Positions 3,026-62,549 of a stretch of 64,000 nt of DNA are shown in pieces. The DNA lies in NCBI GenBank assembly GCA_037447655.1, contig JBBHKE010002613.1:373692-437691 (forward strand). Reading direction: 5' to 3'. Positions within the stretch are counted from its first letter, which is position 1, and the number at the start of each line of letters is the position of its first letter. The notes under the pieces are model-generated. The model had not been told where the DNA came from, did not search any database, and worked only from the letters and a program-made list of their open reading frames with translations. Made by a program: the position numbers and the translations under genes. This DNA comes from Zygnema cylindricum. Taxonomy: Eukaryota; Streptophyta; Zygnematophyceae; Zygnematales; Zygnemataceae.

Positions 3026-3097
3026 ATTTGTTCGAGGGATGTCAGGTTGCCGATGGACGACGGAATGATTCCACTCAACTGGTTGCTATGTAAGAAC
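3026..3097 (-). CDS. LRR exon 27 (last visible in transcription order)
   Basis: This 72-nt exon reads FLHSNQLSGIIPSSIGNL and continues TSLEQ. The acceptor is CACAG and the donor GTAAG. It is the 3'-most LRR cassette in the window; the next downstream exon was not found. Confidence 0.9.
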
Positions 3098-6000
3098 CTG
3101 TGTAACCGTGCAACCCCCCTCCCCTCTCCCACCCAATAACCTCCCAGTCAGTATGGCCTCCTAGTTTTTACACCAAAACATTTGAGCGAAAATTATTGGC
3201 AACTTTCAAGAAAAAAATCCAGCTTTGACCACACAAAAATCCATAAATGTTGACGTTGTAATGGATGGATTTGACAAATTTCAAAGACAATGGTACATAA
3301 AAAGTTTCATATAAACCCGATTTATCGGTAAAAAGTAAATAACACACTCAGGTTCGGAACCACATATAGCACCAAATATACTAATTTATTTTTATACAAT
3401 AAGAAACGTATACTTATATAATTAAGAATTTCACTTTTCATTTCTCCTTCCATTTCCTTCATCGGCTCTTCTCTTCATCATCCAATCTCAACTATATAAA
3501 AAGAGACGATGTTTTTTTTTTGCCTTTCAAACAAAACTGCTCCCGCTTCCAAGTTCTCATCAGTTACTTTCTTCTTCTCATTTATTCTCCCCCCTTTTAA
3601 CTACTCTTCTAAACACAACACTTTGTTTTAGATCGAGGTATTGTGTGAAAGTTAGCGTTTTGTACTCTAAGTCTACATGTTGTAAATACTTTGCACTTAG
3701 TTATTTTCACATATAAAGGGGTAATTCCATGTTTGCGATTTTTCTTTGATCCAATCGTGAAGGTTAAAAGTACAGAAAAAAAACATTTACAAAATGCACA
3801 ATCTTTACACCACATAAAATTTTGTTCACCATCTCTACCCTCCCTAACCATCACCCTCCAAAAGGCTAAATTGATATTTGCAAAACAAACTAAAATAAAA
3901 AAACTCCCTTAAAGACGGGCGTCAAGATACACAATTGTTAAATTTTCTAAACCAAAACGCTTCCAATCACAAATCCGGCCCCAACACCTTCTTGTCCTTT
4001 ATCATGTCAATTTTTTGATTAAAAAAAAAAGTAATATTAAGTAACTTCTAAAAACAAAGAATTCAGCTTCAAAAACCTCAATATTGACGATAAAAATCCA
4101 AAAGGTAAAATTGCTCTTGTTCCCTTCGCCTCACGAGAAGTAGAACCCCTTTTTGAAGGATCTATAACCTGACATGGACCTTTGAAACACAAAAACAACT
4201 AAATATCTGAAAGATTGATTTTGAATTTCAAAAATGAGAAAAATGATATATATACATATATATATATATATACAAGCTCTCAATTAATAAAGATGTAAAG
4301 TTCTTACAACTAAGATGTCGTATTGTATTTTTTACAACACGCCAAAACCATCTAGAGAAAAAAATTGACGCGTGCATAACCATTGCGTGAAGTGTCTTAC
4401 AATTGAGTGAGTTTTTCTAATCGGACAATGGACGACGGGATGCTTCCACTTAACGTGTTGTGATGTAGCTCTCTGTGACATCAGACATCCACACCCCATT
4501 AACACCCAAACCCCGAGTTGATCCCAGTTTAAATAAGCGACAAGGTAATACATCAAAAACAACTGAGCATAATTTTTTGGTTAATACATATGAAATACTG
4601 TTATCCGCTATCACACATGTGGATAGTGACAAACATGATCATAAATAGTGTTATCAGATTTGACTCTCAACTTTTGAAAATTCAAACTTAGAACATAAAT
4701 TTACACTGCATGTTACCTTTTTACAAAACCAGTTTATTACATGAATGGAATAGCATAAAAGAACTGGAGTTGTAAACCACAAAATCCACGTAGTTTTTTG
4801 TGTAGAATTAAGTTTCTACAATAGATGCACATATGCAATTATGTATTGTTTGGAATATTTACTTTAAATTAAAATATACATGTTTAATTGCCCTTATTGT
4901 TGGAGGTAAGACTTCAGTCTATTCAACGTGGTCCATTTTTTCTTTCGGACTTTTAAGGGCAAACTTTGGAGGAAGACAAACATCCTTGGAAGCCAAATAA
5001 GCTGGTCCATTGAATCTAGACATCGTCCGTCTAAAACTAACCTTCTGCCTAGAAATACATTTCTAACTTTGAATATACGTCCAGCGATCCTTAGGACTGA
5101 TAACTCCAGCACGGTCGAGGAACTATTAAGTCCTCTGTCCTAGGCTTCCCACCACTCTATTGGGCATCTATTGCATTGGGTTCTCAACTAAGGGAAATCA
5201 CGTCTAAGTTGTTGATTGTGTAAGCTTGAGTCTTGAGTTTGGATTGGATACGTGGGGAAAACATTGTGGTTGGCTTGCTTGTTGGTTTTTACTAGTGTCA
5301 TAGAGGGTGGCACAATCTCACAACTTACAAACAAAGTTTGATTGTTCCAACTACTTGTATTGGAATTGCTCCTCTAAAGCCTCTTTTGAGACATGTTATA
5401 TTTAGAAGTGTCGTTGCATCAAGCTCAACCTCTCAACACTAACGGTTTTAATTGAAAGAAAAAAAAACCGGAAAAAAAGCATTGGAAAAATGTCTTGGGA
5501 TCTAAGGAAATCGTCGAAAGAATGGAAGTCAGTTCTAATGATGATCAAAATAAAGCGCCGGAATAGTGGAAGATGAAAATTCAAATAGGGATAAAGAGAA
5601 AATACTGAAAGAGTGGAATATGAAACAAATCCAGCCCAAAGGTATACTGATGAGATCTCTGGTGATGGAAAAGACTGTAGTTATAGGACATATGTAGCTA
5701 GCTAGTGAAAGCTAATGAAATATAGGAGCATTTAGAGAGTAAATCTGCTATTGATTCGATTCAACATAAGTTTATTTTCACAAGGTAGAAAAGCTGAGTA
5801 TTCAGGTGGAAAGATGACTAATTACTGTTTTAAAATGGCATTACTGTTTAGTGAGGCCCTAAAAGTCTAAGCATCAAAGAATAAACAATGCCTAACTTGG
5901 CAGAGAAAATGAGTTTCTCTTAAACAGTTGACTCGTAAAGACACATCTGATTGGACTTGCAAAGGAGTTATGCATGCAATTAATTAAATAAGGTCAGGAC

Positions 6001-9000
6001 AAGACCATGAAGACCTACACTAGCTTTTATAAAGGAAAGGCAAAGGAGGGAAAAGACCACCATGGTCTTCTAGGAACATGGTAGCTCCATTCAAGTGTTG
6101 GTATTGCCTATCACTGAAAGTCTCCAGCTACACAAATTTGAATGCTCTAGTGTCCTTAAACAACCAGTATGATGGCTAGATAGGTGACGCCACGGCTCAC
6201 CATAAACGTGTAAGGATAGTTATCAGTTAGTTAAGTTTGAGAAAAAAACACCAAAAAAGGTATTTATGCGAGACGCAGTTGAGTGTTTGCTAAAGGAAAT
6301 GGAATAGTAAATGTTAATCTGAAAGTGGACGGTGGAGAGGATTGAACTTAGTTGTTTCATGTGAATTTTGTTCCTCAGTTCAGCAATAATTTCTCCATTA
6401 AGCTTGACATCGAAAAAGGTGTACAGTTTGATCGAAGTTGATGCTTTCTTCTCCGGCTAGAACCCAATGTGGATATGTAGCAGAAAAGGTTAGGACATGA
6501 TAATTATAAAAAGGTGTTAGTCATTGTCTCTACTCTAATAATAGGAGCTATCAAAAAAGGCATCTTCCAATATGTGTGATGGCTATGCTTTATGCAAGAG
6601 CCACAAACTCCAGTTTCCACTGGATAAAGTCGTCAAAGTTGAGCAAGTTTTCAAGATTATCCACTCAGATGTATGGGAACACCAATGTCAAGGAAGGGAA
6701 GGTCTAGTTTTGAAGGAAAGTAATTTTGAGGTCTCTAAGCATTTTCAATAATTTAAATTGAAGGAAAGTCTTTAAATCTAAGAACAAATAATGGACGTGA
6801 ATATATGCTAATGATTTTGTGGATTTTGTGAAACAGAAAATACACATAATCGACTCTCTTGCATTTTCCTCCATACTATATTAGGTTTTGAAAGAGTTGA
6901 TAGGAAACTTATTGAATCATCTAGAAATATGAGAGTTACCAGGGGGGTGGATTAGAAGTTACATGCAAAAGCTATGAATTGTACATCCTATATCAAAAAA
7001 AGGATAAGTACTTCATTTTTTCGAGAGAGATACCCATAAACTATGGAACAAAGAAGAAACTAGATGTAAGTTACAAGATGTAGCAGAAATGAAAAGGACG
7101 CTCGAGTAGAATTCAAATAGAAGCACAGTCAAGTTAGAAATAGAATTAGAGACTTTAGAGGAGGATAAGGGATTCATGTAGGAGTAGCTTTATAGAGATA
7201 CAGATGGAGGTTTGACATGTATTATGAGTTGTAAAAGACTACAAGTTGGCTTTAACAGTTGGGTCATTAAGCAAACATCTAAAAGCTCTCAATTAGTGTC
7301 AATTTCATGTATTTGGTTACAACAAATTTTGAGAGGACAAGAAGTCAAGATGGACACCAGGAATGATGATAAATATAAAGGCAATAAGGTCACTGAAAAT
7401 TCCAATATTGGTTATTATTCAAAGGTTGGAGAAGGATCATGTTGTTAAGGGAACAAATCCTAAAGTACAGTTGATTTGTCAACTCTGGCGGTAAAACACA
7501 AGTCATCCACCGATCTTTATACTACATATTTTCCCAGCGCATAACTTGTTCTAGGATTATAGTCACTCTTTAAGGCGTCTTATGTGATTTGGGTTTCAAC
7601 AAATGGAAAGCAGGTGTAACTTGTTGAGTGTGTGAGCTTGAGGCTTTAGTCTCTTTTGGATCTATGGGGCAGCTTTGTTGTTGGTTTGCTTCTAGGTTGT
7701 TGCTAGTGTCTTGGAGGGTAGCACAATTTCACACTTTATTAGACAAACACAACTTTTTTATTTGGCAATATGTGGTGAACTTTAACTTTTCAAAATTAAA
7801 ATAGGCTCAAAATGGTTCGTAAATCATCCTACATCATAATACTTGTATTTTATACGCTTGTCTAAATTTAGAATGCTAAAATGATAACCCCTTGTCTTTC
7901 CGATTCAATCCCTTCCCCCCTTATACCCCGTCAAGACCATGCATACAAAGACATTTGATTCCTATCTCCCAGCCTCCTCTTCCTTACGCCCACACCCTTC
8001 ACTTATACATCCGCATCTGTATCACAGATATGTATGCATATTTAGATCTCATCTGCCTCCTTTTGGCCACCTCCGTTTTAAATCTCTTATAATTAACAGA
8101 AAGGGAACCAATAAAGAACCGTATAAAATAGTGACCCCCAAAACTAATCTGAAAGAAAAGTTAGCAAAATTTGTAAAAGAACAATAATTTGCAAAAAACA
8201 ATGTTTTTTCACCACATGGCTTTGCTTACAATCTGATGGACTCCACCTCCTCGTCCTCCAGCAAAAACCATAACCATTTTGAGTGCAAATCTGAGAGTAA
8301 TGTGTGCAAATCTGAGAGTAATGTGTCTTACATTTCCTGGATGGATGTCATGCTGCCAATGGTCGATGGAATGATGCCACTCAACTGGTTGTAAGATAGA
8401 TTTCTGGGATGCCAACCATGCCCACCTCATCAATGCCCTCCCAAACCTCGACCAACCCAGTTTGTGTGAAGTACACATAAATGAATAACAAAATAATAAT
8501 TTACAGAAACAATTAAAAGAGAAAGTCAAGACAAAATTACGTACATATATACGCCCCCACTAAAATTGGCGGAAACGTTAAACAATTACAAAATGCACTA
8601 TTTACGCACCACATAGCTCGGTTTACAATTCCCCGCTCATTGCCCCTTCTCCTTCTATAACAAACCATATTTGTTTATTTAGAGTAGTCTTGATGTGTAA
8701 CATATCTAAAGTGTCCCTTTGAGGATTTTCAGTTGGTCGATGGAAGATGGAATGATTCCACTCAACTTGTTGCTATGCAGATGTATATGACGATGGGATA
8801 AGGAATTCATGAAGGTTAACGCACATAGGGAGACAGTAGGAATTTTGATATTTTAGAATATATAAGGTTTGAGTTGGTTAGAAGTTGGGACCTTGAACAG
8901 GCATTGACAAAATTCCAAAAACACAATTGGGAAACTGCTACGAGGGCCAGGTTTTTGATAATGACCAGAAACATATGGATGAGATTTGGGAGGACAAGAA

Positions 9001-12000
9001 TTCAAGATTGGAATCTGGAGTGGTGATGAATATGATCACAATTTGGAAATATGATAACAATGAGGTAGAACGTCAACTACTGGTCATGTTGATATTTTTT
9101 TGTAAAACACCATATCCATTTAAGATACATATTTGAAAGGTAGCATAACCACATTGTCATGTGTCTTACAGTTCCTCAAGGAGTGTCATTTGACCGATGG
9201 ACGATGGAATGCTTCCATTCAACTTGTTGCTATGCAGGTAACTATGACAGCGAGCATGCCCCCGGCCTCCCCCCAAGAATAAGTACACCCTCCTAGTAAG
9301 TATGGGCTACAACTTCATAGATCCAAAAGATTTGAGTAAATAGTGATTGCATTTGAAGGATTTTATTCAGCTTTGCACCTTTATAAAACTATAAACATGA
9401 TTCTAAATGAATTTCAGACTGTATCGGATGGATTTGAACTACCTTGCAATTAGAAATGTGTCAGGCAAGATTGCATGACATTTTTCATATCTAAAAATCC
9501 AATTAAACTATTGAAATTAGATAATACAAACAAACCTGGAAGCCAATAGTTATGAAAAAATTGCACATTCATTTGTTTGATTGAAACAGATAAACATTTT
9601 TATGTGTATATATTGTGAGTATTCACTTCAAATATTTAGCTATAATGGAATATTTTTTGCAGCAAACAATAAAAAATTGAGAAAACAAATCCGCAAAACC
9701 AATCTTTAGAAGAAAAACAAAAAACGCACAAATATGGAAAGAGAAAAAATCAAGATCAACGGAGATTATTTTCGTATGCGTTCTGTTTTCTTTCATGATT
9801 ATGATTTTAGTGAATACAGATGCATATTAAATCCTATCTCCCTCTCAAAGACCTTCCCTCCCTACGTCCATAGATTATACAATTTTAGAGATTTTTTACA
9901 CAAAAAAAAGTAAAAACCCTGAGAAAATTGGAGAAAAAAAAACAATTACAAAATGCTATGTCTTTACACCACATGACTTGGTTTGCAATACCCTCCCCGC
10001 CCGCCCCCTCTTCCTCCATCATAAACCATATAAAGTACAATTTTGATCCGTACCATAAGTACAATGTCATGTGTCTTACAAGAACTTGAGGGATGTCAAT
10101 TGAGTGATGGACGGTGGAATATTTCCAATCAACTGGTTAACGGATAGATCTCTGTGAAGCCAGGAATCCCCACAACCTCCCCCCTTCCAAACTACTTCCC
10201 AATTAGTATGGACTACAAGTTTATACTCAAACAAGAAAGGTATGAATCCTTGGCAAATAGATTTGACATGTTTTTATCCAACAACTTACTAAAAAAACAG
10301 TGAAACCTGATTTTGAATGGATTTCAAGTTGTTTCGGATGGATTCTAGTCCCCCCAGTTATACAGATTGAAGCATTTAGCACAAGATTGCATGACATGGT
10401 TCGTCTTTAAAAACGAAATTAAATCAAAAGAATAGAGACTCTAAAAGTAATCAGTTTGTAAACCACTTTTATTACATAGTAATAAATTTATCGAAGAGAA
10501 GTTTTGCAACAATAGTACATGGACATATTTTTCATTATGTAATTTTGTATGAATACATAACTATAAAATTGTAGATAATAAATTTAGCACTAGTAGCATA
10601 TGTGGAGACCTTTTGATTTTAGACAAAACATTTTATGTTAATTATCAATCTAGTAATTGTAAATAGTAAAGAAAAAGCATTTATTTTTATGGGAAATTTG
10701 GTTGCAAACCATAACCATTTAGAGTACCTATCTAAGGGTATTGTGTCTTACATTTCCTGGAGGGATGTCAATTTATCAATGGATGATGGAATGCTTCCAC
10801 TCAACTTGTTGCGCCGTACATCTCTGTGAAACAAGAATTCCCACCCCATCAACACCCTCCCCCCCCCCAGTTGCCCAATCATCATGGGGTACAGGGTTAC
10901 ACACCAAACAATATTGAGTGGAAATTCCCAGGCAAGTACATTTGAAAGGTCTTCATCAAACTTTACACATAAAAAATTATAAAAACAATTATAGATTGAC
11001 GGTTGTAACTATGGGTTTTGCCCCACCCCCCCTTTTACAAATTCAAATTTGTAAGACAAGATTGCCCGTGTTTCGTCTTTATAAACCCAGCGAATACGAT
11101 TAATAAACACGGTTTTTAATGGAATGTGCCACGTGTCTTACAAAAGTGTGAGGTTTTTCAGGCCACTGATGGTCAACGGAATGCTTCCACTCAATTGGTT
11201 CTCAGCTAGTTCTCTGTGACACCGGACATCCCACCCCAGCGAACCCCATCGCCCATTTTTTTTTTAATTAGTATGGACTATAAGGTGTATACCAAAGAAG
11301 GTATAAGTTCTTCATAACTATATTTGAAGGAATTTTATGCAACAACGCACTCAAAACAAACAAAGGAACATGATATTTAATCGATTTTAATTTGTACCTA
11401 ATGGATTTGTTGCCCGCCTCGCCTTTTACAGATTGAAGTAGTAAATAGATTATAAGAATTAAACAATACAAACCACCTAAGTTTGTAAATCGCGTAGATT
11501 ACATAGTGATAAATATACTGATAGCAATTTCATAGTAAGTGCAAATACACATTTATTTATTTCAATAATCGCATTTTATGTAAAATTGTAAAAATGTATC
11601 GAATTATGGAGTGCTAGTAGTTTATGCGGAAGCTTTTTTACTTTGAGAGTAAACATGGAATGTTATTATTCAATTGAGATAGTAAAAAAAAGTGCATCTC
11701 TTTTAATATTTTGGTTCCAAGGGAGACATATCCACCTTAGTATTGCAAAGTCGGCCTTTCGTGATTATTGCCATTTTTTTCTAAAAAGTCTCTACACTGT
11801 GGAAACTAAAATCCAATCACTTGCTGGGGACAAAAGGTATTTCAACAGTATTTGAAAATCTTCATTTTTTTTCAAAATAAATGCCGTTTAGTATGTAAGA
11901 ATATAATGTAGTTGCTCAAAAAAAAAAACTTCTAAAAAAACCAACAATCGAAAAATATTTGACCTATACCACTAGATTTTCCATGTTTAATTCAAAGTTC

Positions 12001-18000: not shown

Positions 18001-19222
18001 CACGATTTGCCTTTACAAACGCAATTTAGCTACAAAAATAGAAATATACAAACTAGCTCAGTTTGTAAACCACCTGAATAACACATGAATAAATATATTA
18101 AAGACACTTTACAGCAAGTGCACATGTACATGTTTATTTAATTTCATTATAGAATTTCGCAAGAATACAGAAACGTGCACTTGTTGTAAAATAGTAGCTA
18201 ATACATTTAGCACTAGTACACTGCCCATCCTTATTAGCGTTAAGGGTTATTATTATTAATGCGAAGTCAGAAAACATAATAGTAGTTTAGTACGAGGAGA
18301 CGTGGCAGATTGAAGTCCACTTCTTTAAATAGAGTTGTTAACACTATTTTATGGTTTTCGGCCAAAAAGAGTCGCAAACGATTTGGTGTTATCCACTGTA
18401 ATAACGATAGGCAGTTTTGTATATGTGGAGACCATTTACTTTTAGAGGACACATTTTATGTTAGTATTCAATCTGGCAATTGCAGATATTTAAAAAATAA
18501 CAATCGTATTATGAGAATTTTGATTGCAAGGACAACATCGTAGCGTATGACTTTACCCTTGAAAAAAAAAAATCGTTATAAAGTACAATTAAACACAACA
18601 ATAACATTAATCAATCGCCAAAACGAAACAAAAAAACAGGTTCTCAAAAAGCCAACATTTCGGAAATTCTTTTGTCACGATTGTAGAATTTCCATATCTT
18701 TTTCAAAAGTTAAACTATCGAACAGAAATTCTTGTCCTTAAATAACTTGTGCCCCCAAATACCTTCTCAAATGGACATATGTAATGATATACTTCATCCT
18801 GTCTCATAGCCCCCTCTCTTTTTCCCCCATCCTTCATATTACATTTCAAAAAACTTCAAAATCCAACAAAAAAACCCAAAACTAATTTTAAAAAATTGAA
18901 ACCTCTGAAACATAGCTTAAATTTATCTAGCAAAATCATAGTTGTTTGCATGGCCCCTCTAGACCCCTATCTAGCCACTGTCCCAACCATCCTCACTCCA
19001 CACGTTTCGACACTTAATTCCAATTTAAATAATTCATGAAAAAATTCCATCTTACAAATTCTTAAACATGGAAAGGACTCGAATACGGTCAACAAAAGTA
19101 AATAAAAAGTTAAAAAAAAGCCTATAACCTTCATTATAAATCTATATTTAATTAAAAAAAAAAAACAAATGATAGGATGGTGTACAGAAAAAAACTTACA
19201 TCATCATCATCATCATCTTCAC

Positions 19223-19297
<75 letters not shown>

Positions 19298-22063: not shown

Positions 22064-22096
<33 letters not shown>

Positions 22097-34000: not shown

Positions 34001-37000
34001 TTAGAACTGTTTGAACGACGCATTGAGCAAACATACAAACAACCAAAAAAAAAAAAAATCGACGATCCAGCTCAAAAGTACAAAATGAAACACATCTAAA
34101 AATTTGGAGGAAAGAAAAATTATTTGTAAAATGCAAACTCTTCACACCAGGGGGCTTTTTTTCACGATCCCCACCCTTTTTTCTTCCACCAAAATAAAAG
34201 CAGGCATTCCAATAACCAACCCAAAAAAAAAAATATCTTCAAATATAGAAGTAACAATACACAAATGTTAAAGACGTATTTTTTACGTTAAAATGCTTCT
34301 AGTCACGATCCCCTCCCTCCCTCCCTCCCTCCCTCCCTCAATCATGTTAGTGTACATTGTGAGAATCGGCAAATCGGCCGAGTGTTTGTGGGTCAGTTTG
34401 TATCGATTCGAGTCAGTCTTATTCGATTGGTTCGGTTGTTTGAATTCTGTACTTCTATTTTCCTTGGGTATGCAGTGTTAGTTACGTAAAATATGTTTAT
34501 GTGCCCTCCTGTGGTGAATGCTTCCACTTTTGTGAACTTTTTGTTGATCCTATTAAATCAAACCTCTTCCTCCGTGACAAAAAAAGAAAAAAAATACTTG
34601 TAAAAGCTTTTCAAAACTATACCAAATTCCAGAAACAAAAAAGATACATGACCGTCCGGCTCCTCCACCATGCAATCATAGTTATGCTATTATGAATATG
34701 AACAAAAAAATACGCGTAAAAAATGAGTAAGTATAAGCATAGATATTTAAATATCGATGTAAATTTACATCCTTCCTCTTTCCCTTTGATCTTCCCTCTC
34801 TACCTAGTCAGATTATTCAACTTCAAATGTTTTGTGGCATAAAAGAACATATAACACAAATTATAATTATTTGAAAAACCATCAAAAACAAAACAAAATG
34901 AAAAAAAAATGGAGGAAAAAACACCAACTACAAGATGCAGTGTTTTCACATCATGAGGCTTGGTTTACAGTCCCCTGCTCACCACCCCTCTTCCTCCATC
35001 ACAAACCATATCTATTCAGAGTACACTTTTGATAAGTAGCATAACCACAATGCCACGTGTCTTACAAGCCTTTGAGAGATGGCAGGTTGCCGATGGTCGA
35101 TGGAATGCTTCCACTAAACCTGTTGTTTTCTAGACCTCTGTAATGACGGGCATCCCCAATAAAACAAATCCCCGTCAAATTCCATAACTATTGCTTACTC
35201 GGTATTTTGGGATTAACATGATAAATAAACACGATTTTGAATGCGTTATGTCATGTATTTCACAAAGGTAAGAGTTTATTCAAAATGTGTTTGAAGAATT
35301 GGTTGCAGGTTAGACCGCTGTGACACCGGATGCCGGGGATATCCGCCAAGTGTTAGATATTTGGCAAAAGAATTAGTTCTTTGCGCGGAAATTTAAGGTT
35401 GAGTTTCAGAGGAAATAACTTTGTACCTCGGCCACCCTGTTGGTGCGATGTGTGTTTTCACCTGGATGCAAAAAAGCTTGTAGGTGTAGATCCCTTAATT
35501 ATTGTGTATAATTACAAGATAATTGGGAAGTGCCAAAACAGCATAGGGTTATGATCATGCAGTGTTTTCAAAAAAATATCGTGTGTCCCTTTTGATTCTA
35601 ACACTTAGCGCTTTAAAATTATTTGTATGTCCTACCCAAGCCTAAACCGTTGACTAGTCTTAGTTTTTCTACTCTACCGAGTAGAGAGCCCTTCTGTGTA
35701 TGAAAGAAAAAGATCACATTTGATCTTTACTTAATATAATTGAGACAACAACCAAAGGAGAATTCTCTATTCATTATATTCTTGCCGTGGCTTTTCGTTG
35801 TCTTCTATCTAAACAGCTGCACCCGTTTATAAGATCAAGTAATATAATATCTACTGCAAATCATAACTACTTAGAGTAATCAATTGAAAAGAAAATCACG
35901 AAATCAAAAAACAAGAAAAAGTCTTAAGATGTAAGGAATAAAATCACAATAAAAAGAGAGTATTTCCAGTCTGAATCGGTTTTGGTTTCATAGGTTCTCG
36001 CCCCTCCCCTCCCATTTTCTACATTCCATCAGATATTTTCCATTACAAATAATTTATGAAAAGAAAAAGCAAGAAATTAACAAATCCAATTTACAACAGC
36101 CTCAAATATAAAGAAGCCTCAAAAATGGGTGAGGGAAATGAAAAATAGATAATTAATAAATTTGTAAATATCGAACAAAACTACGCCAAATTTCAAAAGA
36201 TACGTTTGTCCGATCACTCCCCAATAAATACATATAATACGTATTTTACATATGAACAAGTAAACATAAGCATAAATATTATGTAAGTACAAGCATACAA
36301 ATGTGTATGTACACTTATATCCTACCTCCCTGCCTTTAGCTTTCTCTCCTTTCATATAGAAGTTTCACATGTTTCATCAAAAGAATAAAGTGAAAATGAA
36401 ACATACAAAATAAACATTCAGAAAACCATTAAACAGAGATCATACAAATCTTAAAGAAAAAAACGATAACAAAATAAAATGTCTTCACACCACATGGCTT
36501 TGTATACAATCCCTTGCCAACCGCCTCCCTTTTCCTACGGTATAGTCCATATCCGTTTAGAGAACACTTTTGATGGCCCACAGTGTCATTAAACTTACAA
36601 TTGCTCGAGTGACACCATTTTTTCAATGGACGTTGGAATGATTCCACTCAATTCATTGGTATCTAAATTTCTGTCCTCAGGCATCCCACCCGGACAACAT
36701 TCGCCACCCGAAAAATCACCCAGTCATCATGAGGTACACGACTATAAACCATAAATTTTTTGAGTATGCATTCTTGGTAAGAATATTTGGAGGTTCTTTA
36801 CAAACCATGCACTGAAAAAATTTGAAACAAACGATTCTAGATTTCAAGTTGTAGCTGATGGGTTTTAACCCCACCCTTTTTTTTGCAAATCCAAGTGAGT
36901 AAGACAAGATTGCACAACATATATCCTCTTGACAAACCCAAATACACTATATATATTGAATATCACAAATTTCTTAACATCATTTTTACTTACTATTGTT

Positions 37001-40000: not shown

Positions 40001-43000
40001 CTCGATCGTCCCAAGACACTCGGGATTCTCAAAAATCAAAATCCAGGTTGCCGATCTCAAGTGAAAAGGAACCAAAGGACACAATCATGACGGTTACTCG
40101 TAGGAGCAACCGCAAAACAAGAGGGAAGAATTCGAAGAGACTTGTGTATAATCGGAAGGGTGGAGACGTCACCAACTCTCATTATTTTATGTTGAAACTA
40201 CATTTTTGGAGCACATTTGAGGAGGGAAGTACTTGGGTTTACACTTTAAGGTTTCCTCATTTAGGAGAGGTATGTTTGGGGTCAAAGTGATCTGTGAGAA
40301 CATAGGGGATATCAAGCTCACCTAGGAGCAATATAGCAAGGAAGCGATGGCGAGGTTTTCTATGACGGACGCAATCGCTTCGACACCTTTAGACTCAACC
40401 ATTAAGGTACCGAAAATTTGAGGAGCAAGAAGCCGAGAACGTTTTGTACCGGAGGCGATCGAACACCTCGTGTGTTTAAGCATTAAGACTCCGCCTAACA
40501 ATTTTGTGGCAGTCTCAGTTGTGAGTAAATTTTGTCACTTATTGAAAAAGTCACATTGGAAGGTCATGAAAAGGATTTTGAGGTATTCGTGGGAACCGTG
40601 ACTTTGGGACTTGTATTCAATTCGGTCCCAAAACCACTAAATGGATATTATGATACAGGTTGGGCTAAGTATTTTATTTCCGAAAATATTACGTCCAGGT
40701 GTGCCTTTGTATTTGGTGGGTAACTACCTTCGAGAGTTCTCGTCTACAACTGAAAGTGGCTTTGAGTCTAGGGTGGCCTTGAGTTTGATGTAAGCTCACT
40801 ACTACCATCGTGCCATGCCACAAAAGCTTTGGAGTAGATAAAGGAGATGTTACGTGAGTTGGGAGTTTCTATTAGATGTATGTGCATCCATTCGAATAGT
40901 ATGAGCTTGATGGCATTTGTGAAATATTCCGTACTCCAAAAGCACACAACCATGTACGGATCGCGTGGCATTTTGTTCCCGATCAAGTGGCGGCTAAAGA
41001 AGTGAAATTTAGTCTACGGTGGAAAAAACATTGAACATGATAGTAAATGTTGCTATCTATGATGTTGTAAGTTATTTTACTATGTGTGACGGTCGTCGTA
41101 AGTTACGGTTAGTATGATGTATATGTGTGGATTCCCACATTGAGAGGGAAAATGTTAGGATGCAATGCGTGAATCGTCGTATCAGTCGTGTTCGCTCGAT
41201 GTATTATATTGTACGTTTTATATGTATTAAGTTATTTTGTGCGCGGTATTTAGTACCGTCCCCGCTCCAACACACAATTTCGTTTCACCGAAATTGTGTC
41301 TTCTTCGTTTGGAAGTTGGTCTAATAGCTTGGTGTTCAATGTCTATGGTAGTGTGGAGAACGTTGAGTGGTTCGCGACTGCTATACAGTACACCGTGAAT
41401 CGCAATTAGTGTTAATGTTTTTTTCGTCGCTTAAAGCATCTTTTCTTCGCACACGCTTGTTTGATTGTAGATCTGATGGTTGCGATTGAAAGGTAAGATT
41501 CTCAGCTTCCGATTGGCGGTCTCAAATTGAAAATCGGACAAGTGTGTACGGATAAAAGATGTTTTGAGGGAAAATTCACTAACCCTAATAGCGATTCAAG
41601 GTGTAGTGATAGTAGAAAGCTTTGTTGTAGGAATTCATTTATAAGTATTGAGGATAGTAATTTGAGTTAGAGAAACAATCTTTATAAGAGAGAAAAGCTT
41701 TGTCCTAATACAATTATGTTTGGCTAAATTTTTGTGCATTGATGTGAATGTTTTGTTTTTGTCTATGTGATTGAATTGCGCAATATGAGTGAAAGATAAT
41801 TGTTATCAATCCTACCAGCTATTTAGGGATCAACATTATTATAAAAACAATTTTGATTGGATTGTGTCATGTGCCTCACAAAAATTGGAGGTTTGTCAAG
41901 AGTGCAATGGACGATGGAATGTTTCCACTCAATTGGTTTTTAGATAGATCTCTGTAGTGCCAAAATTCCCACCCCACCAAAAGGCCCCACACAAACGCCT
42001 CCCAATTATTATGAGCTTGAAGGTTATACACCAAAACAAATTGGGTATGTTTCCTTGATAAGTATATGTGAAAGCCTTTTGTAAAACAACGCACGCAAAA
42101 AACTAAGAAACAATATTTTGAAATGGATACTGTTCCAGATGGATTCTACCCCGCCCCTCTACTTTTAAAAATTAAATTGCATAACATAATATCGCATGGC
42201 ATAGTTTGTACTTACGAAGGCAATTAAATCACAAGAATTCAAAGAGACAAAGCAACTCGATTTGTCAACCTCATTGATTACATAGTGATAAATGTATTGA
42301 TAACAAGTTTTACAGGAAGTGCAAATAAGCATAAATATTTTTAATTCCATCATGGAATTTTACATATTTAACATGTACACTTGTTATAGTCCCTTCACTT
42401 TGACAAAACACATTGGATGTTATAATTTAATCTCGCAAACACAAATAGTAGAAATGTACACACCGTTTAATATTTTGGTTCTAAGGAATATACGTTGATG
42501 ACTATTTCACCTTTCCACTCTAGTTTGGCAAAGTTAACCTTTCGGGATTTTTTTTTCAACCAAATATGTCAAATACATTTTTGTGGAAATTGAATAATCC
42601 AATCACTTGCTGAAGCCATAAGTTTTTCAAAAGTAGATGTTAACTTTCATTTGTTTCCAACGGAATACATATTAAATAATGGCTCAGAAAAAAAAAGGTT
42701 CTCAAGAGACCATCATTACAAAATATCGAAGCCATCGTATTAAAGTTTCCATATCTACTTCAAAATTAAGGAAAAATAAAATGACTTTGTTAGATTCCAT
42801 TGGATTTAAGCCCCATTTTTTTTACAAAATGAAATGTTTACCCCAAGATCGAATAAAGTGTTTCAGTTTTAAAACACCATTAGAGTATAATAATTAATAA
42901 TAAGAAAATGATGTTGATGATTACTCTCTAAGATAAACGCTTTTGACCCCAGACTCTTTTTTCCTCTTAACCTTTCTAAATTCCTGAAGTGGAGGCGCAC

Positions 43001-43843
43001 AGTATAAAAAAACTTGAAATTTTATCCCTCAAACACAGATTTTTCTAAGCGAATAGACAGTCTATTGTGACTTCTAAAAGCAAACAAACCCTTAAAAATT
43101 ACACGTTTTGTTTTCCTAAGAAGGGGAAAAATACATTAGAAAATAAAAGAAAAGGGTGCAAATCGGTTGTGTTTGAGTGAATGTCTTGTTACAGTTCATT
43201 ACCTTATATCTATTGTTTTCACATAAGTGTTTAGCTTTTCGTTGGAATCATACACACAGTCCTGGGCGCATTGAATATCCATTCATATATTTTCGGTTAG
43301 CAATACATGTTTGTCTCCTAATATGTTTTAAATAGGTGCTAATTTCGTGTCTCAGGACTGAGTTAAGCTTAACTTGGTCAGGTGGCCGTTACTCGCGAGT
43401 TGTGTTTTAGTTTTTTGAGCGGAGTCTTGAAAGAGGAAAAATGTAAGAGAGTAGAAAAAAAGCTTCCGCCTAACACAAGTTTATTTGGCTGAGAACTAAA
43501 ACTGTTTTGTGGTATGCTTTTCTGTGTGAAAGAGTTATCGTTGTGAGTGTGTTTGAGAGCTTATGCTTGAGTACACTCTTATATAAAATCAATATTATCA
43601 ATAATAACCCTCCCTCCACTCCCCCTCATATGCCATTTTAGCAAAATAAAACTAAAGGATAGAAAAAAAAATGAAGATAAAATACAGTTCCAAATAAAAA
43701 TGTATTTTACTCATACGTTTATCTTTTTCTTTAGAGCATGAGATCTGTAACCCTTTCCAGTGTTCACTCACAAATGAAGCAAAGCTGTGAGGTTGCCAAT
43801 CTCCTTTGCAATACTTCCTTTTAGCTCCTTTTCTATTAGGTTT
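3026..43843 (-). CDS. modular LRR receptor-like gene (or array), one LRR per exon
   Basis: Twenty-seven minus-strand exons each encode one 24-residue plant-type LRR (LxxNxLSGxIPxxI). In every exon the reading is one base completing a split codon, 23 codons, then two bases, so all introns are phase 2. Donors are GTAAG or GTGAG and acceptors end in AG (CACAG, CATAG, TATAG, TACAG). Twenty-four exons look intact; 8,713, 28,950/32,155 and 35,264 are defective. LRR arrays of this type normally form ligand-binding ectodomains. No signal peptide, membrane span, kinase, GTPase or NB-ARC domain is visible, so the partner domains lie outside the window or are unrecognised. The array could be one very large gene or several adjacent genes. 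Introns carry four LTR elements. The exon-per-LRR layout resembles that reported for brown-algal ROCO-type LRR receptors; that comparison is from memory of the family. Confidence 0.8.
4401..4472 (-). CDS. LRR exon 26
   Basis: The exon is 72 nt and reads ELHHNTLSGSIPSSIVRL, ending EKLTQ. It has a CACAG acceptor and a GTAAG donor. It is paralogous to the exon at 13,185: both end LTQ and share about 1 kb of flanking intron on each side, including a copia element on the same side. Confidence 0.92.
4896..7745 (+). mobile_element. decayed Ty1/copia LTR retrotransposon inside an LRR intron
   Basis: The left terminal repeat starts TGTTGGAGGTAAG at about 4,899 and runs to about 5,330. A partial right copy covers about 7,565-7,740; the two share the AGCTTGAG...TTGGCTTGCTTGT...GAGGGTRGCACAAT segment. 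Internally, translated pieces such as HSDVWE at about 6,665 resemble the copia integrase motif (HSDVWGP), but stops and frameshifts are frequent. No reverse transcriptase core is evident. It is related to the copy at 13.67-16.3 kb, and both lie upstream (in plus coordinates) of paralogous LRR exons. One insertion followed by block duplication explains this. Confidence 0.7.
7746..8331 (-). other. LRR intron sequence
   Basis: This AT-rich intron holds the recurrent motif that lies beyond the donor in many LRR introns (ACACCACATGGC-like, here at about 8,210-8,225) and a tandem GTGTGCAAATCTGAGAGTAAT duplication at 8,283-8,325 next to the donor of the exon at 8,332. Confidence 0.5.
8332..8403 (-). 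CDS. LRR exon 25
   Basis: The exon is 72 nt and reads NLSYNQLSGIIPSTIGSM, then TSIQE. The acceptor is CCCAG and the donor GTAAG. With 8,713 it forms an extra pair absent from the paralogous block around 13-17 kb. Confidence 0.9.
8713..8784 (-). pseudogene. LRR pseudo-exon with lost splice sites
   Basis: The coding phase is intact and reads HLHSNKLSGIIPSSIDQL, then KILKG. The donor position reads ACTTT instead of GTAAG, and the acceptor position lacks AG. The cassette is therefore open but probably skipped or retired. Copia-like debris starts directly beside it at about 8,800. Confidence 0.75.
8800..9110 (+). mobile_element. copia fragment
   Basis: The segment GATTTGGGAGGACAAGAATT...CACAATTTGGA...GTCAACTACTGGTCATGTT is closely similar to 15,350-15,475 in the copia copy at 13.7-16.3 kb. 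It has no intact frame. It abuts the pseudo-exon at 8,713. Confidence 0.6.
9170..9241 (-). CDS. LRR exon 24
   Basis: The exon is 72 nt and reads YLHSNKLNGSIPSSIGQM, then TLLEE. The acceptor is CATAG and the donor GTAAG. It is identical over all 72 nt to the exon at 16,641, while the adjoining introns have diverged. Confidence 0.93.
10080..10151 (-). CDS. LRR exon 23
   Basis: The exon is 72 nt and reads DLSVNQLIGNIPPSITQL, then TSLKF. It has a CACAG acceptor and a GTAAG donor. It is paralogous to 17,686, 22,589 and 25,989, which share the TQL/SQL-xSLxF ending. Confidence 0.93.
10752..10823 (-). CDS. LRR exon 22
   Basis: The exon is 72 nt and reads DVRRNKLSGSIPSSIDKL, then TSLQE. It has a CACAG acceptor and a GTAAG donor. 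The first two variable positions carry arginines, unlike any other cassette here. Confidence 0.92.
11142..11213 (-). CDS. LRR exon 21
   Basis: The exon is 72 nt and reads ELAENQLSGSIPLTISGL, then KNLTL. It has a CACAG acceptor and a GTAAG donor. It lies only 318 bp from the previous exon, one of the shortest introns in the array. Confidence 0.92.
11214..13184 (-). other. long LRR intron with an exon-less repeat unit
   Basis: This is AT-rich intron. Around 12,520-12,960 it carries the recurrent flanking modules (the ACAAGACATGGCTT-like motif and a CAGCTTC...AATATCGACAG segment) that also occur near 4,080, 20,215-20,545, 23,930 and 27,950. The modules that would hold an exon are absent between 11,214 and 13,184. 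TTTTAGGG repeats occur at 12,763-12,785. Confidence 0.55.
13185..13256 (-). CDS. LRR exon 20
   Basis: The exon is 72 nt and reads NLSDNLLSGGIPSSIGQL, then TYLTQ. It has a CACAG acceptor and a GTAAG donor. It is the paralogue of 4,401, with similar flanks and a copia element on the same side. Confidence 0.93.
13668..16295 (+). mobile_element. decayed Ty1/copia retrotransposon, paralogue of the 4.9 kb copy
   Basis: The left LTR begins TGTCGGAAGTATGAC at about 13,671. The right LTR begins TGTTGGAGGTAAGG at about 15,924 and ends near 16,290; the two share the GGACTTTAGGGGCAGACGCTTGAGG-type segment. The best coding remnant is the RNase H end (15,567-15,870): VATTAVVKDVICVKTFLTKL, then FCERIFKKGKLNKFKW, then ACGLSEKE. 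These match the copia C-terminus pattern (YMALTTAxKEAxWL...DIRxHFIRE...ADMMTKxL). Integrase and reverse transcriptase parts are degraded or missing. Confidence 0.8.
15567..15890 (+). pseudogene. copia RNase H C-terminal remnant
   Basis: An 82-codon frame (EVCYMVATTAVVKDVICVKT and onward) carries the last part of a copia polyprotein, ending at FKWQA. The overlapping frame MKKIVDMMIKTLKNL continues the ADMxTKxL motif after a frameshift near 15,810. The right LTR starts about 30 bp later, which is the normal arrangement. It is non-functional on its own. Confidence 0.75.
16641..16712 (-). CDS. LRR exon 19
   Basis: The exon is 72 nt and identical to 9,170 (YLHSNKLNGSIPSSIGQM). It has a CACAG acceptor (9,170 uses CATAG) and a GTAAG donor. 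A CCCTAAA-type array lies about 250 bp beyond it. Confidence 0.93.
16962..17037. repeat. CCCTAAA-type interstitial telomere-like array
   Basis: About ten consecutive CCCTAA/CCCTAAAA units with variable A-tracts lie in the intron beside LRR exon 16,641. Isolated units occur elsewhere (12,763; 13,478; 17,470; 52,565-52,640). Whether this is the host's telomere repeat is not shown by the sequence. Confidence 0.8.
17686..17754 (-). CDS. LRR exon 18, one codon shorter
   Basis: This exon is 69 nt and reads ELPGNELSGNISSITQL, then TSLRF. The usual IPSSI is shortened to ISSI by an in-frame 3-nt loss. The acceptor is TATAG and the donor GTAAG. Frame and splice sites are kept, so it may be functional. 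Confidence 0.88.
18221..18414. mobile_element. 194-bp MITE, family B
   Basis: Terminal inverted repeats are CTGCCCATCCTTATTA and, at the other end, TAATAACGATAGGCAG (14 of 16 match). The element interrupts an intronic segment that is continuous near 10,590 and 23,085 (CACTAGTAG...ATGTGGAGACC), which fixes the insertion boundaries. It has no coding capacity. Confidence 0.8.
19055..19785. repeat. tandem duplication around a CAT microsatellite
   Basis: A block starting ATGGAAAGGACTCGAATACGG occurs at about 19,067 and 19,455. It ends with AACACGAGCCTACTATACAA in both copies (about 19,402 and 19,750). The first copy holds roughly 40 CAT/ATC units (19,199-19,322), the second about 13 (19,636-19,671). 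Each microsatellite is followed by AGCTCGGC...GCCGAGCT and a T-rich tract. The poly-His frame through the first tract is a by-product of the repeat. Confidence 0.85.
19322..19358. repeat. AGCTCGGC / GCCGAGCT hairpin followed by T-tract
   Basis: A perfect 8-bp inverted repeat with an 18-bp loop is followed by TTTTTCTC. An equivalent hairpin follows the second CAT tract at about 19,669-19,703 with a loop difference (GATGACG versus TATGAG). No function can be assigned. Confidence 0.7.
20827..20898 (-). CDS. LRR exon 17
   Basis: The exon is 72 nt and reads DLGNNQLSGSIPSTISSL, then RKLTN. The acceptor is CATAG and the donor GTAAG. It is paralogous to 24,244 and 28,316. Confidence 0.92.
21477..21548 (-). 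CDS. LRR exon 16
   Basis: The exon is 72 nt and reads DLSDNQLNGNIPSIIGSM, then TSLTV. It has a CACAG acceptor and a GTAAG donor. It is identical to 24,889. Confidence 0.93.
21964..22035 (-). CDS. LRR exon 15
   Basis: The exon is 72 nt and reads ILPNNQFNGSIPSTFSSV, then KKLGY. The acceptor is CACAG and the donor GTGAG. It is identical to 25,376. A long C-tract (G-tract on the coding strand) lies 30 bp upstream of the acceptor. Confidence 0.92.
22065..22094. repeat. poly-C tract (30 C) beside an LRR acceptor
   Basis: There are thirty consecutive C on the plus strand, so the transcript of the LRR gene would carry G30 shortly before the 21,964 acceptor. The duplicate copy has 21 C (25,474-25,494). 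Confidence 0.9.
22589..22660 (-). CDS. LRR exon 14
   Basis: The exon is 72 nt and reads DLSNNQLSGNIPLSISQL, then PSLEF. The acceptor is TATAG and the donor GTAAG. It is identical to 25,989. Confidence 0.93.
22661..24243 (-). other. LRR intron, 1.6 kb
   Basis: This is AT-rich intron made of modules also found at 26,061-28,315. No exon is recognisable. Similarity between the two copies is near-perfect up to 23,334 and then falls visibly, marking the edge of the recent duplication or gene conversion. Confidence 0.6.
24244..24315 (-). CDS. LRR exon 13
   Basis: The exon is 72 nt and reads DLGYNQLSGNIPSTISGL, then KVLGY. It has a CACAG acceptor and a GTAAG donor. It differs from 28,316 at only a few bases, two of which change residues (S/N and G/S). 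Confidence 0.93.
24889..24960 (-). CDS. LRR exon 12
   Basis: The exon is 72 nt and identical to 21,477 (DLSDNQLNGNIPSIIGSM). It has a CACAG acceptor and a GTAAG donor. Confidence 0.93.
25376..25447 (-). CDS. LRR exon 11
   Basis: The exon is 72 nt and identical to 21,964 (ILPNNQFNGSIPSTFSSV). It has a CACAG acceptor and a GTGAG donor. The adjacent C-tract is 21 nt instead of 30. Confidence 0.92.
25989..26060 (-). CDS. LRR exon 10
   Basis: The exon is 72 nt and identical to 22,589 (DLSNNQLSGNIPLSISQL). It has a TATAG acceptor and a GTAAG donor. Confidence 0.93.
26061..28315 (-). other. LRR intron, 2.3 kb
   Basis: This is the older paralogue of the 22,661-24,243 intron, longer by a segment around 27,120-27,950. 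It includes an ATATAT run at 27,146-27,168. No exon or transposon protein is recognised. Confidence 0.6.
28316..28387 (-). CDS. LRR exon 9
   Basis: The exon is 72 nt and reads DLGYNQLSGNIPSTINGL, then KVLSY. It has a CACAG acceptor and a GTAAG donor. Confidence 0.93.
28950..28980 (-). pseudogene. LRR exon 8, 3' part, disrupted by an LTR element
   Basis: The donor (GTGAG) and the coding end NLTSLNT are intact, but at the CCATGG site the exon stops and LTR-element DNA begins. The rest of the same cassette resumes at about 32,155. The intact sister exon at 10,752 reads across the same point (CAATGGATGATGG). Confidence 0.88.
29531..29716 (+). pseudogene. copia gag-like fragment in the opposite orientation
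   Basis: The frame has ALMVEGLFVRGRTPQSHKLE, followed by charged residues and a broken zinc-knuckle-like stretch (CGCPYIWLLWKKE). This resembles the VRGRS...CxxCxKxGH region of copia gag. It reads on the plus strand although the LTR polarity and gag start of the surrounding element are minus. Confidence 0.45.
29990..30950. other. unassigned interior of the LTR element
   Basis: I recognise no protease, integrase or reverse transcriptase here on either strand. The stretch carries repeated phrases (CTATCGAACTCGCTAATGAGTC twice at 30,063-30,105) and is probably rearranged element DNA. Confidence 0.4.
30959..31772 (-). pseudogene. decayed copia gag
   Basis: On the minus strand the start MSSTVIGYGPNN is followed by FKGTYFYRGNYQIEHLLHRG and LWSITCGSKSE up to a stop. 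After a frameshift, SLLTSAYENQTWYN and YRKMLSNSIQ continue, then INDPFPNDDIILFLL. This order matches the UBN2/retrotran_gag region of copia elements. Several frameshifts and stops make it inactive. Confidence 0.7.
32155..32197 (-). pseudogene. LRR exon 8, 5' part, disrupted
   Basis: The coding remainder reads GLNNNKLCGRIPSS on the minus strand. The expected acceptor has become GCAA rather than CACAG, so the exon is lost twice over (insertion and acceptor). Confidence 0.8.
32550..32621 (-). CDS. LRR exon 7
   Basis: The exon is 72 nt and reads GLYGNQLTKSIPLSIFNM, then KKLSY. The acceptor is CGCAG and the donor GTAAG. The usual SG before xIP is replaced by TK, so it is more divergent than most cassettes. 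Confidence 0.88.
32622..35065 (-). other. LRR intron, 2.4 kb
   Basis: This is AT-rich intron with the recurrent non-coding modules. It has a CTCC repeat at 34,310-34,340, ATAT runs at 33,925-33,945, and no recognisable exon. Confidence 0.55.
35066..35137 (-). CDS. LRR exon 6
   Basis: The exon is 72 nt and reads GLENNRFSGSIPSTIGNL, then PSLKG. The acceptor is TACAG and the donor GTAAG. Confidence 0.92.
35264..35317 (-). pseudogene. shortened LRR exon 5 (54 nt)
   Basis: The acceptor (CACAG) and phase are kept, but 18 nt of the core are missing and the GxIP motif is gone (GLTCNQFFKHILNKL). The donor is a weak GTGAA. It is probably a decaying cassette, though it is still frame-neutral if spliced. 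Confidence 0.65.
35345..35850. mobile_element. possible solo LTR or unclassified insertion
   Basis: This segment interrupts the usual intron modules. It begins TGTTAGATATTTGG and contains an ACTCTACCGAGTAGAG palindrome and GAGAATTCTCTATTCATTAT near its end, as many copia LTRs do. I could not find a partner LTR or clear target duplications. Confidence 0.35.
36599..36670 (-). CDS. LRR exon 4
   Basis: The exon is 72 nt and reads NLDTNELSGIIPTSIEKM, then VSLEQ. The acceptor is GACAG and the donor GTAAG. The flank beyond the donor has diverged from the common CACATGAC form. Confidence 0.9.
37690..41010 (+). pseudogene. copia gag-pol remnant
   Basis: Recognisable pieces appear in copia order. The aspartic protease motif ELINDTGASHHVC lies at about 38,349. 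The pre-integrase piece SLWHHRVCHTSTVDLRRM is at about 38,782. The integrase start HVDLCGHANAKLG is at about 38,984. The integrase C-terminal GFSSQGNVKQVYDLARN is at about 39,708. The end of reverse transcriptase, EQYSKEAMARFSMTDAIAST, is at about 40,330. An RNase H region is at about 40,530-41,010 (KRILRYSWEP, HFVPDQVAAKE). The YVDD-containing core is not visible and appears deleted between about 39,320 and 40,250. In-frame stops and shifts show it is dead. Confidence 0.85.
41386..41608. mobile_element. foldback MITE, family A, copy 2, inside an LTR
   Basis: Inverted ends are CAGTACACCGTGAATCGC and GCGATTCAAGGTGTAGTG, next to TA. It interrupts only the right LTR of the 37.0-41.8 kb copia element; the left LTR is continuous there (TACAGTAGAGATAGTAGTG). 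Confidence 0.85.
41880..41951 (-). CDS. LRR exon 3
   Basis: The exon is 72 nt and reads DLSKNQLSGNIPSSIALL, then TNLQF. The acceptor is TACAG and the donor GTGAG. It matches the plant LRR consensus best of all cassettes. Confidence 0.94.
41952..43771 (-). other. LRR intron, 1.8 kb
   Basis: This is AT-rich. The first part carries the usual intron modules (for example, the CTCGCAAACACAAATAG segment at about 42,433). The 43,200-43,560 part is different and LTR-like (TAAGCTTAAC palindrome, TATATAAAATC), but I found no partner. Confidence 0.5.
43772..43843 (-). CDS. LRR exon 2 (first visible in transcription order is this or upstream)
   Basis: The exon is 72 nt and reads NLIEKELKGSIAKEIGNL, then TALLH. 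The acceptor is TGCAG and the donor GTGAG. It keeps the frame and the GxI...IGNL pattern, but SG and IP are changed to KG and IA. Its flanks are CT-rich and unlike the other LRR introns. It is the most upstream cassette found. Confidence 0.85.
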
Positions 43844-45055: not shown

Positions 45056-45205
45056 GAGCCATGGCTGCCTCAGGAGAGGGAGCTAGAGCCGAGGGAGCTA
45101 GAGCCATGGCTGCCCAGGAGAGGGAGCTAGAGCCATGGCTGCCTCAGGAGAGGGAGCTAGAGCCATGGCTGCCTCAGGAGAGGGAGCTAGAGCCATGGCT
45201 GCCTA
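45056..45205. repeat. 30-bp minisatellite in the 5' LTR
   Basis: Units of GAGAGGGAGCTAGAGCCATG plus GCTGCCTCAG repeat about five times with one shortened unit. The 3' LTR carries a single unit (48,216-48,245), so the array expanded after insertion or was copied from an expanded parent. The length explains most of the difference between the two LTRs. Confidence 0.9.
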
Positions 45206-52915: not shown

Positions 52916-53149
52916 AAAAGTGCGAACATAACAGCAATAATCACTCACATGCGAGTCACGCGACGCTGACCGTTGCATGTAAAGGGATCCGATTCCTCTC
53001 CATAGCATTCGATTTTTGGAAATTCTCCCTCCGTTATGGCCTTCTTCACGGCCTCCAGAGCCTTTTCTGGAGTAGAGAGAGACAGAAGACACGTGTCAAT
53101 TGAAGATATTTAGTTAGACATTCCCACGTGTGAAGACATGGGTTGCAAC

Positions 53150-57764: not shown

Positions 57765-57869
57765 GTGAAAACCCTAATCTTGGACAGCCCTAAACCATAT
57801 CTCTCTAACCCTAACCTGATCCCAAAATTGAACCCTTGTCCTTAGCCAATACCCTAACCCCATTCCTAA

Positions 57870-62545: not shown

Positions 62546-62549
62546 TGTT

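What the first reader, a model, noticed from the sequence alone, without database searches (positions are those of the whole stretch)
3026..43843. Cassette array: 27 single-LRR exons, all frame-neutral
Every exon starts and ends at the same codon position (phase 2-2), and lengths are 72, 69 or 54 nt. Any subset, order or repeat number therefore keeps the reading frame, and each cassette is exactly one structural repeat. That is an ideal substrate for exon shuffling, alternative splicing or recombination to diversify a recognition surface. A similar exon-per-LRR design in brown-algal receptors has been proposed to support receptor diversification. This window may show an independent or related case with unusually long introns.
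Basis: partly seen in the sequence, partly recalled or inferred. Interest (0 to 1): 0.92.

Follow-up and report, generated by a model that had tools for sequence, protein, structure and literature searches.

The report
Algal receptor gene built from LRR exons
A stretch of DNA, probably from a green alga close to land plants, holds two dozen small exons that each encode one leucine-rich repeat of a probable receptor; this one-repeat-per-exon layout is already known from plants, but here it still shows how the array grew by duplication through its introns and was then selected to vary its probable binding face.

Summary
The array is real but miscounted. On the minus strand, 43843 to 3026, lie 24 intact GT-AG, phase 2-2 exons (23 of 72 nt, one of 69 nt), each one plant-type LRR, plus four decayed remnants; 200 shuffles gave none. 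A neighbouring peptidase gene is closest to Mesotaenium (74%), so the host is probably a streptophyte green alga, not a brown alga. The same design (72-nt phase-2 exon, intron splitting the first Leu of xxLxLxx) is reported for rice LRR kinases: a known kind. Paralogous cassettes align through their introns, so the array grew by tandem duplication of exon-intron blocks and lost copies by decay. Scaffold codons are conserved (omega 0.1-0.2) while concave positions change faster than introns (omega 1.5-2.7), which fits diversifying selection on a binding face. 'Any order' is not quite true: one cassette makes a stop before 19 of the 24 exons. Acceptors carry a G-rich tract instead of a pyrimidine tract, unexplained. 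Nothing shows alternative splicing or somatic recombination. Most likely an LRR receptor gene, conventionally spliced; no kinase or N-terminal cap was seen, but the scans were weak for short exons and the gene leaves the window.

The parts
43772..43843 (-). cassette 1, 72 nt, NLIEKELKGSIAKEIGNLTALLHL; looks like a first LRR (A in place of P)
41880..41951 (-). cassette 2, 72 nt
36599..36670 (-). cassette 3, 72 nt
35227..35330 (-). decayed cassette remnant
   Evidence: nhmmer E 8.5e-5; a stop in each of the three frames
35066..35137 (-). cassette 4, 72 nt
32550..32621 (-). cassette 5, 72 nt (GLYGNQLTKSIPLSIFNMKKLSYL)
32125..32210 (-). decayed cassette remnant; LRR frame breaks off after GRIPSS and runs into a stop
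   Evidence: nhmmer E 9.1e-11
28912..28990 (-). decayed 3' half of a cassette with its donor side; older copy of the 24889 type (D')
   Evidence: nhmmer E 5.2e-11; alignment 23887-24907 with 27947-28968
28316..28387 (-). cassette 6 (type A'), 72 nt
25989..26060 (-). cassette 7 (type B), 72 nt
25376..25447 (-). cassette 8 (type C), 72 nt
24889..24960 (-). cassette 9 (type D), 72 nt
24244..24315 (-). cassette 10 (type A), 72 nt
22589..22660 (-). cassette 11 (type B copy), 72 nt
21964..22035 (-). cassette 12 (type C copy), 72 nt
21477..21548 (-). cassette 13 (type D copy), 72 nt
20827..20898 (-). cassette 14 (type A'', diverged), 72 nt
17686..17754 (-). cassette 15, 69 nt, ends in TG: stop codon if joined to an A-starting exon
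16641..16712 (-). cassette 16 (type E), 72 nt
13185..13256 (-). cassette 17, 72 nt
11142..11213 (-). cassette 18, 72 nt
10752..10823 (-). cassette 19, 72 nt
10080..10151 (-). cassette 20 (B-like), 72 nt
9170..9241 (-). cassette 21 (type E copy; exon identical to 16641, introns 83% in the aligned part)
8702..8795 (-). decayed cassette: LRR frame still open, but no AG acceptor or GT donor at the cassette edges
8332..8403 (-). cassette 22, 72 nt
4401..4472 (-). cassette 23, 72 nt
3026..3097 (-). cassette 24, 72 nt, last seen in the window
20522..27146 (-). tandem duplication: 20522-23756 aligns with 23898-27146 (about 3.4 kb apart, B-C-D-A block), 90% over all columns; the part from about 21349 to 23349 is 99-100% per 100 columns except one bin of 88%

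Best explanation
This is the ectodomain part of a large plant-type LRR receptor gene (LRR receptor kinase or receptor-like protein) of a streptophyte green alga. Each of at least 24 LRRs is encoded by its own phase-2 exon, and the pre-mRNA is most likely spliced in order into one long LRR solenoid. Because every intron splits the same Leu codon of the xxLxLxx strand, tandem duplications with breakpoints inside introns add or remove whole repeats without changing the frame. The array grew that way, lost some copies by decay, and the surviving copies were then selected to differ at the concave, probable ligand-binding positions. Shown from sequence: the exons, phases, splice dinucleotides, intron-through duplications, decayed copies and site-specific rates. 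Inferred: receptor function, membrane location, that all cassettes are joined in order, and unequal crossing over as the cause.
For: 24 intact cassettes, 23 of them found by a scan that gave 0 in 200 shuffles; one open frame through all 24; Pfam LRR_1 at E 1.1e-69 and LRR_8 at 1.1e-63 on the spliced peptide. In the capped protein search (8000 candidates scored, 7990 with E <= 0.001, 120 listed) the listed hits that name an organism are, as far as I read them, land plants, many labelled receptor-like protein or LRR receptor kinase, at 29-45% identity. The architecture matches rice LRR kinases: 72-nt phase-2 exon, one LRR, intron at the first Leu of xxLxLxx (PMC3050792). Best hit of the adjacent M16 peptidase gene is Mesotaenium at 74%; the next named ones are Botryococcus and Cymbomonas at 59%. 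Duplications run through introns: about 3.4 kb, about 4.06 kb and several older ones. Relative rates: scaffold codon positions 1+2 0.15, concave 1.89, third positions 0.66, introns 0.98 and 1.13 (analysis, values); omega concave 2.73 (LRT p 7.6e-7), or 1.47 (p 0.0075) if the exon neutral rate is set to the intron rate; scaffold 0.19 or 0.10.
Against: No LRR N-terminal cap or kinase was recognised and signal-peptide and transmembrane predictors were not run, so receptor class is unproven; the Pfam scans of stop-bridged frames were insensitive, recovering only one sub-threshold LRR_1 match although most cassettes lay in the stretches scanned. No transcript evidence. Exons are not more similar than introns overall: exon identity exceeded intron identity in only 12 of 28 paralogous alignments, some of them redundant; I read this as fast change at exposed positions plus gap-inflated intron identity. 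Averaged over all 171 pairs pN does not exceed pS at concave positions (0.574 against 0.627, near saturation). Taxon rests on a short part of one neighbouring gene; a search aimed at longer homologues found none. The near-identical part of the 3.4-kb block could be an assembly artefact.
Confidence: 0.72

Rival explanations
1. The cassettes are alternatively spliced (exon skipping in varied combinations), so one gene yields many LRR ectodomains, as reported for brown-algal ROCO genes.
For: All lengths are multiples of three and phases match; 557 of 576 ordered junctions make no stop; acceptors lack a pyrimidine tract and have a G-rich tract, which might weaken or regulate exon inclusion (inference); brown-algal ROCO genes with the same exon design show splice variants (PMC11378527, sections 11 and 15 seen).
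Against: No transcripts. Same phase and length follow from descent from one ancestral exon and are reported for rice LRR kinases. Donors look uniformly strong (GTAAG or GTGAG in 24 of 24). One cassette creates a stop with most partners.
Confidence: 0.13
2. A brown-algal or other stramenopile LRR gene (ROCO-like) with the same exon design.
For: Same exon size, phase and repeat length as brown-algal ROCO LRR exons (PMC11378527).
Against: The part of the neighbouring M16 gene compared is closest to Mesotaenium and, among named hits, then to chlorophytes; no ROC or COR match, though those scans were weak and the region downstream of the LRRs is outside the window.
Confidence: 0.04
3. A dead or silent reservoir of LRR cassettes.
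For: Four decayed copies, copia gag and pol pieces inside one intron, low overall exon-intron contrast.
Against: 24 cassettes keep frame and splice dinucleotides, and scaffold codon positions 1+2 evolve at relative rate 0.15 against about 1 for introns.
Confidence: 0.07
4. Somatic or programmed recombination of cassettes between individuals or cells.
For: Recent 3.4-kb duplication; strict G-quadruplex motifs in the last 70 nt before 11 of 24 cassettes against 85 of 16849 other sampled 70-mers of the array.
Against: No second individual or recombinase was examined; ordinary unequal crossing over explains the duplications.
Confidence: 0.02

Closest known systems
Plant LRR receptor kinases with one-LRR exons (rice LRR kinases; PMC3050792)
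   Same: 72-nt phase-2 exons of one LRR each, 69 nt among the other lengths, intron splitting the first Leu of xxLxLxx; plant-type LSGxIP repeat
   Different: here at least 24 LRR exons over 41 kb with introns to 5.2 kb, G-rich acceptors, visible block duplications and decayed copies; kinase not seen
Brown-algal ROCO genes (PMC11378527)
   Same: 72-bp phase-2 one-LRR exons, duplication, positively selected sites on the concave face
   Different: lineage differs; ROC-COR not found; no splice variants shown here
Tetrahymena 90-bp exon LRR genes (PMC6564038)
   Same: tandem arrays of uniform-length exons with phase-2 introns, growth attributed to ectopic recombination
   Different: 90 bp instead of 72, thousands of genes, a ciliate

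Membership tests
Plant LRR receptor kinase or receptor-like protein gene | plant-type 24-residue LRRs (LxxLxLxxNxLSGxIPxx; motif recalled) | tested here: met
Plant LRR receptor kinase or receptor-like protein gene | one-LRR 72-nt phase-2 exons, intron at first Leu of xxLxLxx | tested here: met
   reference description in PMC3050792
Plant LRR receptor kinase or receptor-like protein gene | LRR N-terminal cap upstream | tested here: inconclusive
   none recognised on the minus strand upstream of 43843 by Pfam or motif; transposon-rich region, weak scans
Plant LRR receptor kinase or receptor-like protein gene | signal peptide and transmembrane segment | not tested
   no predictor was run; a hydrophobic start in an open frame at 53117-53443 minus was seen by eye
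Plant LRR receptor kinase or receptor-like protein gene | kinase domain downstream (for kinases) | tested here: inconclusive
   no kinase match or HRD motif in the stretches scanned; the downstream part lies beyond base 1
Plant LRR receptor kinase or receptor-like protein gene | green-lineage host | tested here: met
   neighbour gene best matches Mesotaenium, then among named hits Botryococcus and Cymbomonas; rests on part of one gene
Brown-algal ROCO LRR gene | 72-bp phase-2 LRR exons | tested here: met
Brown-algal ROCO LRR gene | ROC-COR domain C-terminal to the LRRs | tested here: inconclusive
   not found in the stretches scanned; downstream region not available
Brown-algal ROCO LRR gene | brown-algal host | tested here: not met
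   one gene
Alternatively spliced cassette array | transcripts with different cassette subsets | not testable with these tools
   no transcript data

The most novel reading that the evidence does not exclude
In an algal relative of land plants, a receptor gene carries an LRR exon array whose acceptors have G-rich, often quadruplex-capable tracts in place of pyrimidine tracts; these make cassette inclusion variable, so the gene produces many ectodomains by exon choice, while the same tracts promote the intron-borne duplications that renew the array.
Probability: 0.1. Interest if true: 0.85.

Novelty: new member of a known kind. Interest (0 to 1): 0.4.

Why it matters
The locus keeps a readable record of how a one-LRR-per-exon receptor grows: duplicated exon-intron blocks of several ages, decayed copies, and selection focused on the probable binding face. 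If it is a streptophyte alga, the exon design known from land-plant LRR kinases predates land plants or was kept outside them, and the G-rich acceptors give a simple test of whether such arrays are spliced in full or in choices.

Tried and rejected
Pairing between intron ends: the duplex of the two ends is stronger than with shuffled 3' ends, but native pairs are no better than permuted ones (p 0.85, 0.82 and 0.64 for three lengths, 23 introns), so no evidence for a euglenid-like intron structure (comparison recalled). G-tract constraint: identity at -21 to -40 between 11 related pairs (some share a cassette) is 0.78, against 0.76-0.80 from -41 to -120, so shared descent may explain the tract. 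Search for an N-terminal cap or kinase by motif and Pfam gave nothing. Not given to Pfam: minus-strand 42501-43699 and 58700-64000, and plus-strand 1-43699. These scans recovered only one sub-threshold LRR_1 match from the array itself, so they say little about domains on short exons. Exon exchange by gene conversion: the 16641 and 9170 exons are identical while introns are 83% identical; not tested further. A paper search for 72-bp phase-2 LRR exons by phrase gave nothing. The whole-genome search could not be used.

Selection analysis used 19 of 24 cassettes: dropped were the three copies in the 3.4-kb block (22589, 21964, 21477), the first cassette (43772) and the 69-nt cassette (17686). Concave positions were set from recalled LRR structure; I had seen the cassette sequences before setting them. 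That set ranks 37th to 43rd of 2002 five-position sets of the 14 non-scaffold positions in the four settings tried, near the top but not the top. The codon model ignores gene conversion and takes the intron-flank tree as true.

Full report
What is there. The cassettes lie on the minus strand. A pattern scan for AG, a phase-2 LRR reading frame and a donor found them only on that strand; profile searches at protein and DNA level completed the set. There are 24 intact cassettes from 43772-43843 to 3026-3097, 23 of 72 nt and one of 69 nt, and four decayed remnants (35227-35330, 32125-32210, 28912-28990, 8702-8795). The 72-nt scan gives 23 on the minus strand, 0 on the plus strand and 0 in 200 dinucleotide shuffles. 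Joined in order the 24 exons give one open frame. The 23 introns are 318-5209 nt.

Host. The window is 36.6% GC (from the counts). A gene on the plus strand from 57018 has M16-peptidase exons at 57018-57764 and 61153-61237 and a further piece near 63356-63467 (sequence, compared with P0121; exon ends read by eye). Pfam gave no family for the first exon alone; the hits of the joined peptide carry PF00675 in 18 of 20 rows. Residues 190-277 of that peptide gave 20 hits of 130 candidates: best a protein with the JGI name Mesen1 (Mesotaenium endlicherianum, expansion recalled) at 74%, then proteins without a named organism at 66, 66 and 65%, Botryococcus (JGI name Botrbrau1) at 59% and Cymbomonas at 59%. 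Candidates were limited to about 152-485 residues, so full-length land-plant homologues could not appear; a second search meant to admit longer ones found none of 61 candidates at E 0.001. A streptophyte green alga is the best reading, not a proof. The introns of this neighbour are also kilobases long, so long introns are not special to the array.

What the exon design means. The split codon at each junction is the first Leu of xxLxLxx. The rice LRR-kinase paper (PMC3050792; passages and section 6 seen) reports 72-nt phase-2 exons of one LRR, other lengths including 69, introns splitting that Leu, and growth by exon duplication and shuffling. Brown-algal ROCO genes have 72-bp phase-2 LRR exons (PMC11378527; abstract and sections 11 and 15 seen), and Tetrahymena has 90-bp phase-2 arrays (PMC6564038; passages seen). 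The design is therefore a known kind. A survey of plant receptors reports LRR-RLK expansion in green algae and SERK co-receptors in Zygnematophyceae, and holds no mention of exons or introns in its main text (PMC10834447; passages seen). I do not claim that streptophyte-algal arrays are absent from print; searches listed no paper with such an array in the title or the start of the abstract.

How it grew. Self-comparison shows paralogous cassettes aligning through introns: 20522-23756 with 23898-27146 (about 3.4 kb apart; 99-100% per 100 columns from about 21349 to 23349 except one bin of 88%), 23887-24907 with 27947-28968 (about 4.06 kb apart, 86%; it brings the decayed remnant at 28912-28990 into register with cassette 24889), 9092-9500 with 16565-16964 at 83%, and several longer ones at 66-71% such as 9543-10595 with 17108-18218. 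In gene order the stretch from 29 to 20.8 kb reads D' (decayed), A', B, C, D, A, B, C, D, A''. Duplication by breakpoints in introns followed by decay of single cassettes explains this; unequal crossing over is the likely cause but inferred.

Selection. For 19 of the 24 cassettes, mean entropy is 0.32 bits at scaffold positions, 2.72 at concave positions 1, 3, 4, 22, 23 and 1.84 at the rest. Relative rates on a common tree: scaffold codon positions 1+2 0.15, concave 1.89, other 0.88, third positions 0.66, upstream intron 0.98, downstream intron 1.13. A codon model on the intron-flank tree gives omega 2.73 at concave positions (LRT p 7.6e-7), 0.19 scaffold, 1.38 other; with the exon neutral rate fixed to the intron rate 1.47 (p 0.0075), 0.10 and 0.77. 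The concave set ranks 38 of 2002 on the flank tree. Positions 16, 17 and 20 also score above 1 in the first setting, so the signal is not confined to the concave face. Seven sister pairs: pN 0.373 (32.0 of 85.8) and pS 0.209 (4.0 of 19.2) at concave positions, 0.043 and 0.199 at scaffold, 0.193 and 0.227 overall. Against a simple picture: over all 171 pairs concave pN is 0.574 and pS 0.627, near saturation, and exons were more alike than introns in only 12 of 28 alignments with at least 60 exon and 150 intron columns, several of them redundant.

Interchangeability. All cassettes but one end in a T as second base of the split codon, so junction residues are L, I, F or M; the cassette 17686-17754 ends in TG and makes a stop before the 19 exons that start with A. 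In its native place the next exon starts with T and the junction is Cys.

Acceptors. From -40 to -21 the introns before the 24 cassettes are 54% G against 18% in intron background. The pyrimidine share from -20 to -4 is 0.29 to 0.59. A strict quadruplex motif is in the last 70 nt before 11 of 24 cassettes, against 85 of 16849 other sampled 70-mers of the array on the same strand. Of the two acceptors of the neighbour gene that I read, one is clearly T-rich. Whether the tract acts in splicing or only shows common descent is open.

Verdict. A probable plant-type LRR receptor gene of a streptophyte alga, of a known exon design, with an unusually readable duplication history and signs of diversifying selection. 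Cassette choice in splicing is possible and untested.

Noticed in passing
3026-43843, acceptors of cassettes, minus strand: G-rich tract (54% G at -40 to -21) replaces the pyrimidine tract at cassette acceptors; strict G-quadruplex motifs before 11 of 24.
   Followed up: partly
57018-63467, plus strand: M16 zinc-peptidase gene with a targeting-like, proline-rich first exon and kilobase introns; best match Mesotaenium.
   Followed up: partly
46536-46904 plus; 49765-50469 minus; 31431-31679 and 30756-30950 minus: Copia-type gag, reverse transcriptase and pol pieces upstream of the array and inside the intron between cassettes 5 and 6 (coordinates computed from the frame positions).
   Followed up: no
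800-1028, 41384-41610, 53807-54041, 60117-60342: Repeat family of about 225 nt; several copies also match themselves or each other inverted, perhaps a foldback element; one copy sits in an LRR intron.
   Followed up: no
45175-46208 and 48214-49270: Direct repeat of about 1 kb, 90% identical, 3 kb apart, around the gag piece; possibly LTR-like.
   Followed up: no
53117-53443, minus strand: Open frame with a hydrophobic, signal-peptide-like start upstream of the array, followed by low-complexity sequence; link to the LRR gene unknown.
   Followed up: no
about 57830-58100: Degenerate CCCTAA-rich stretch, telomere-like, inside the first intron of the M16 gene.
   Followed up: no
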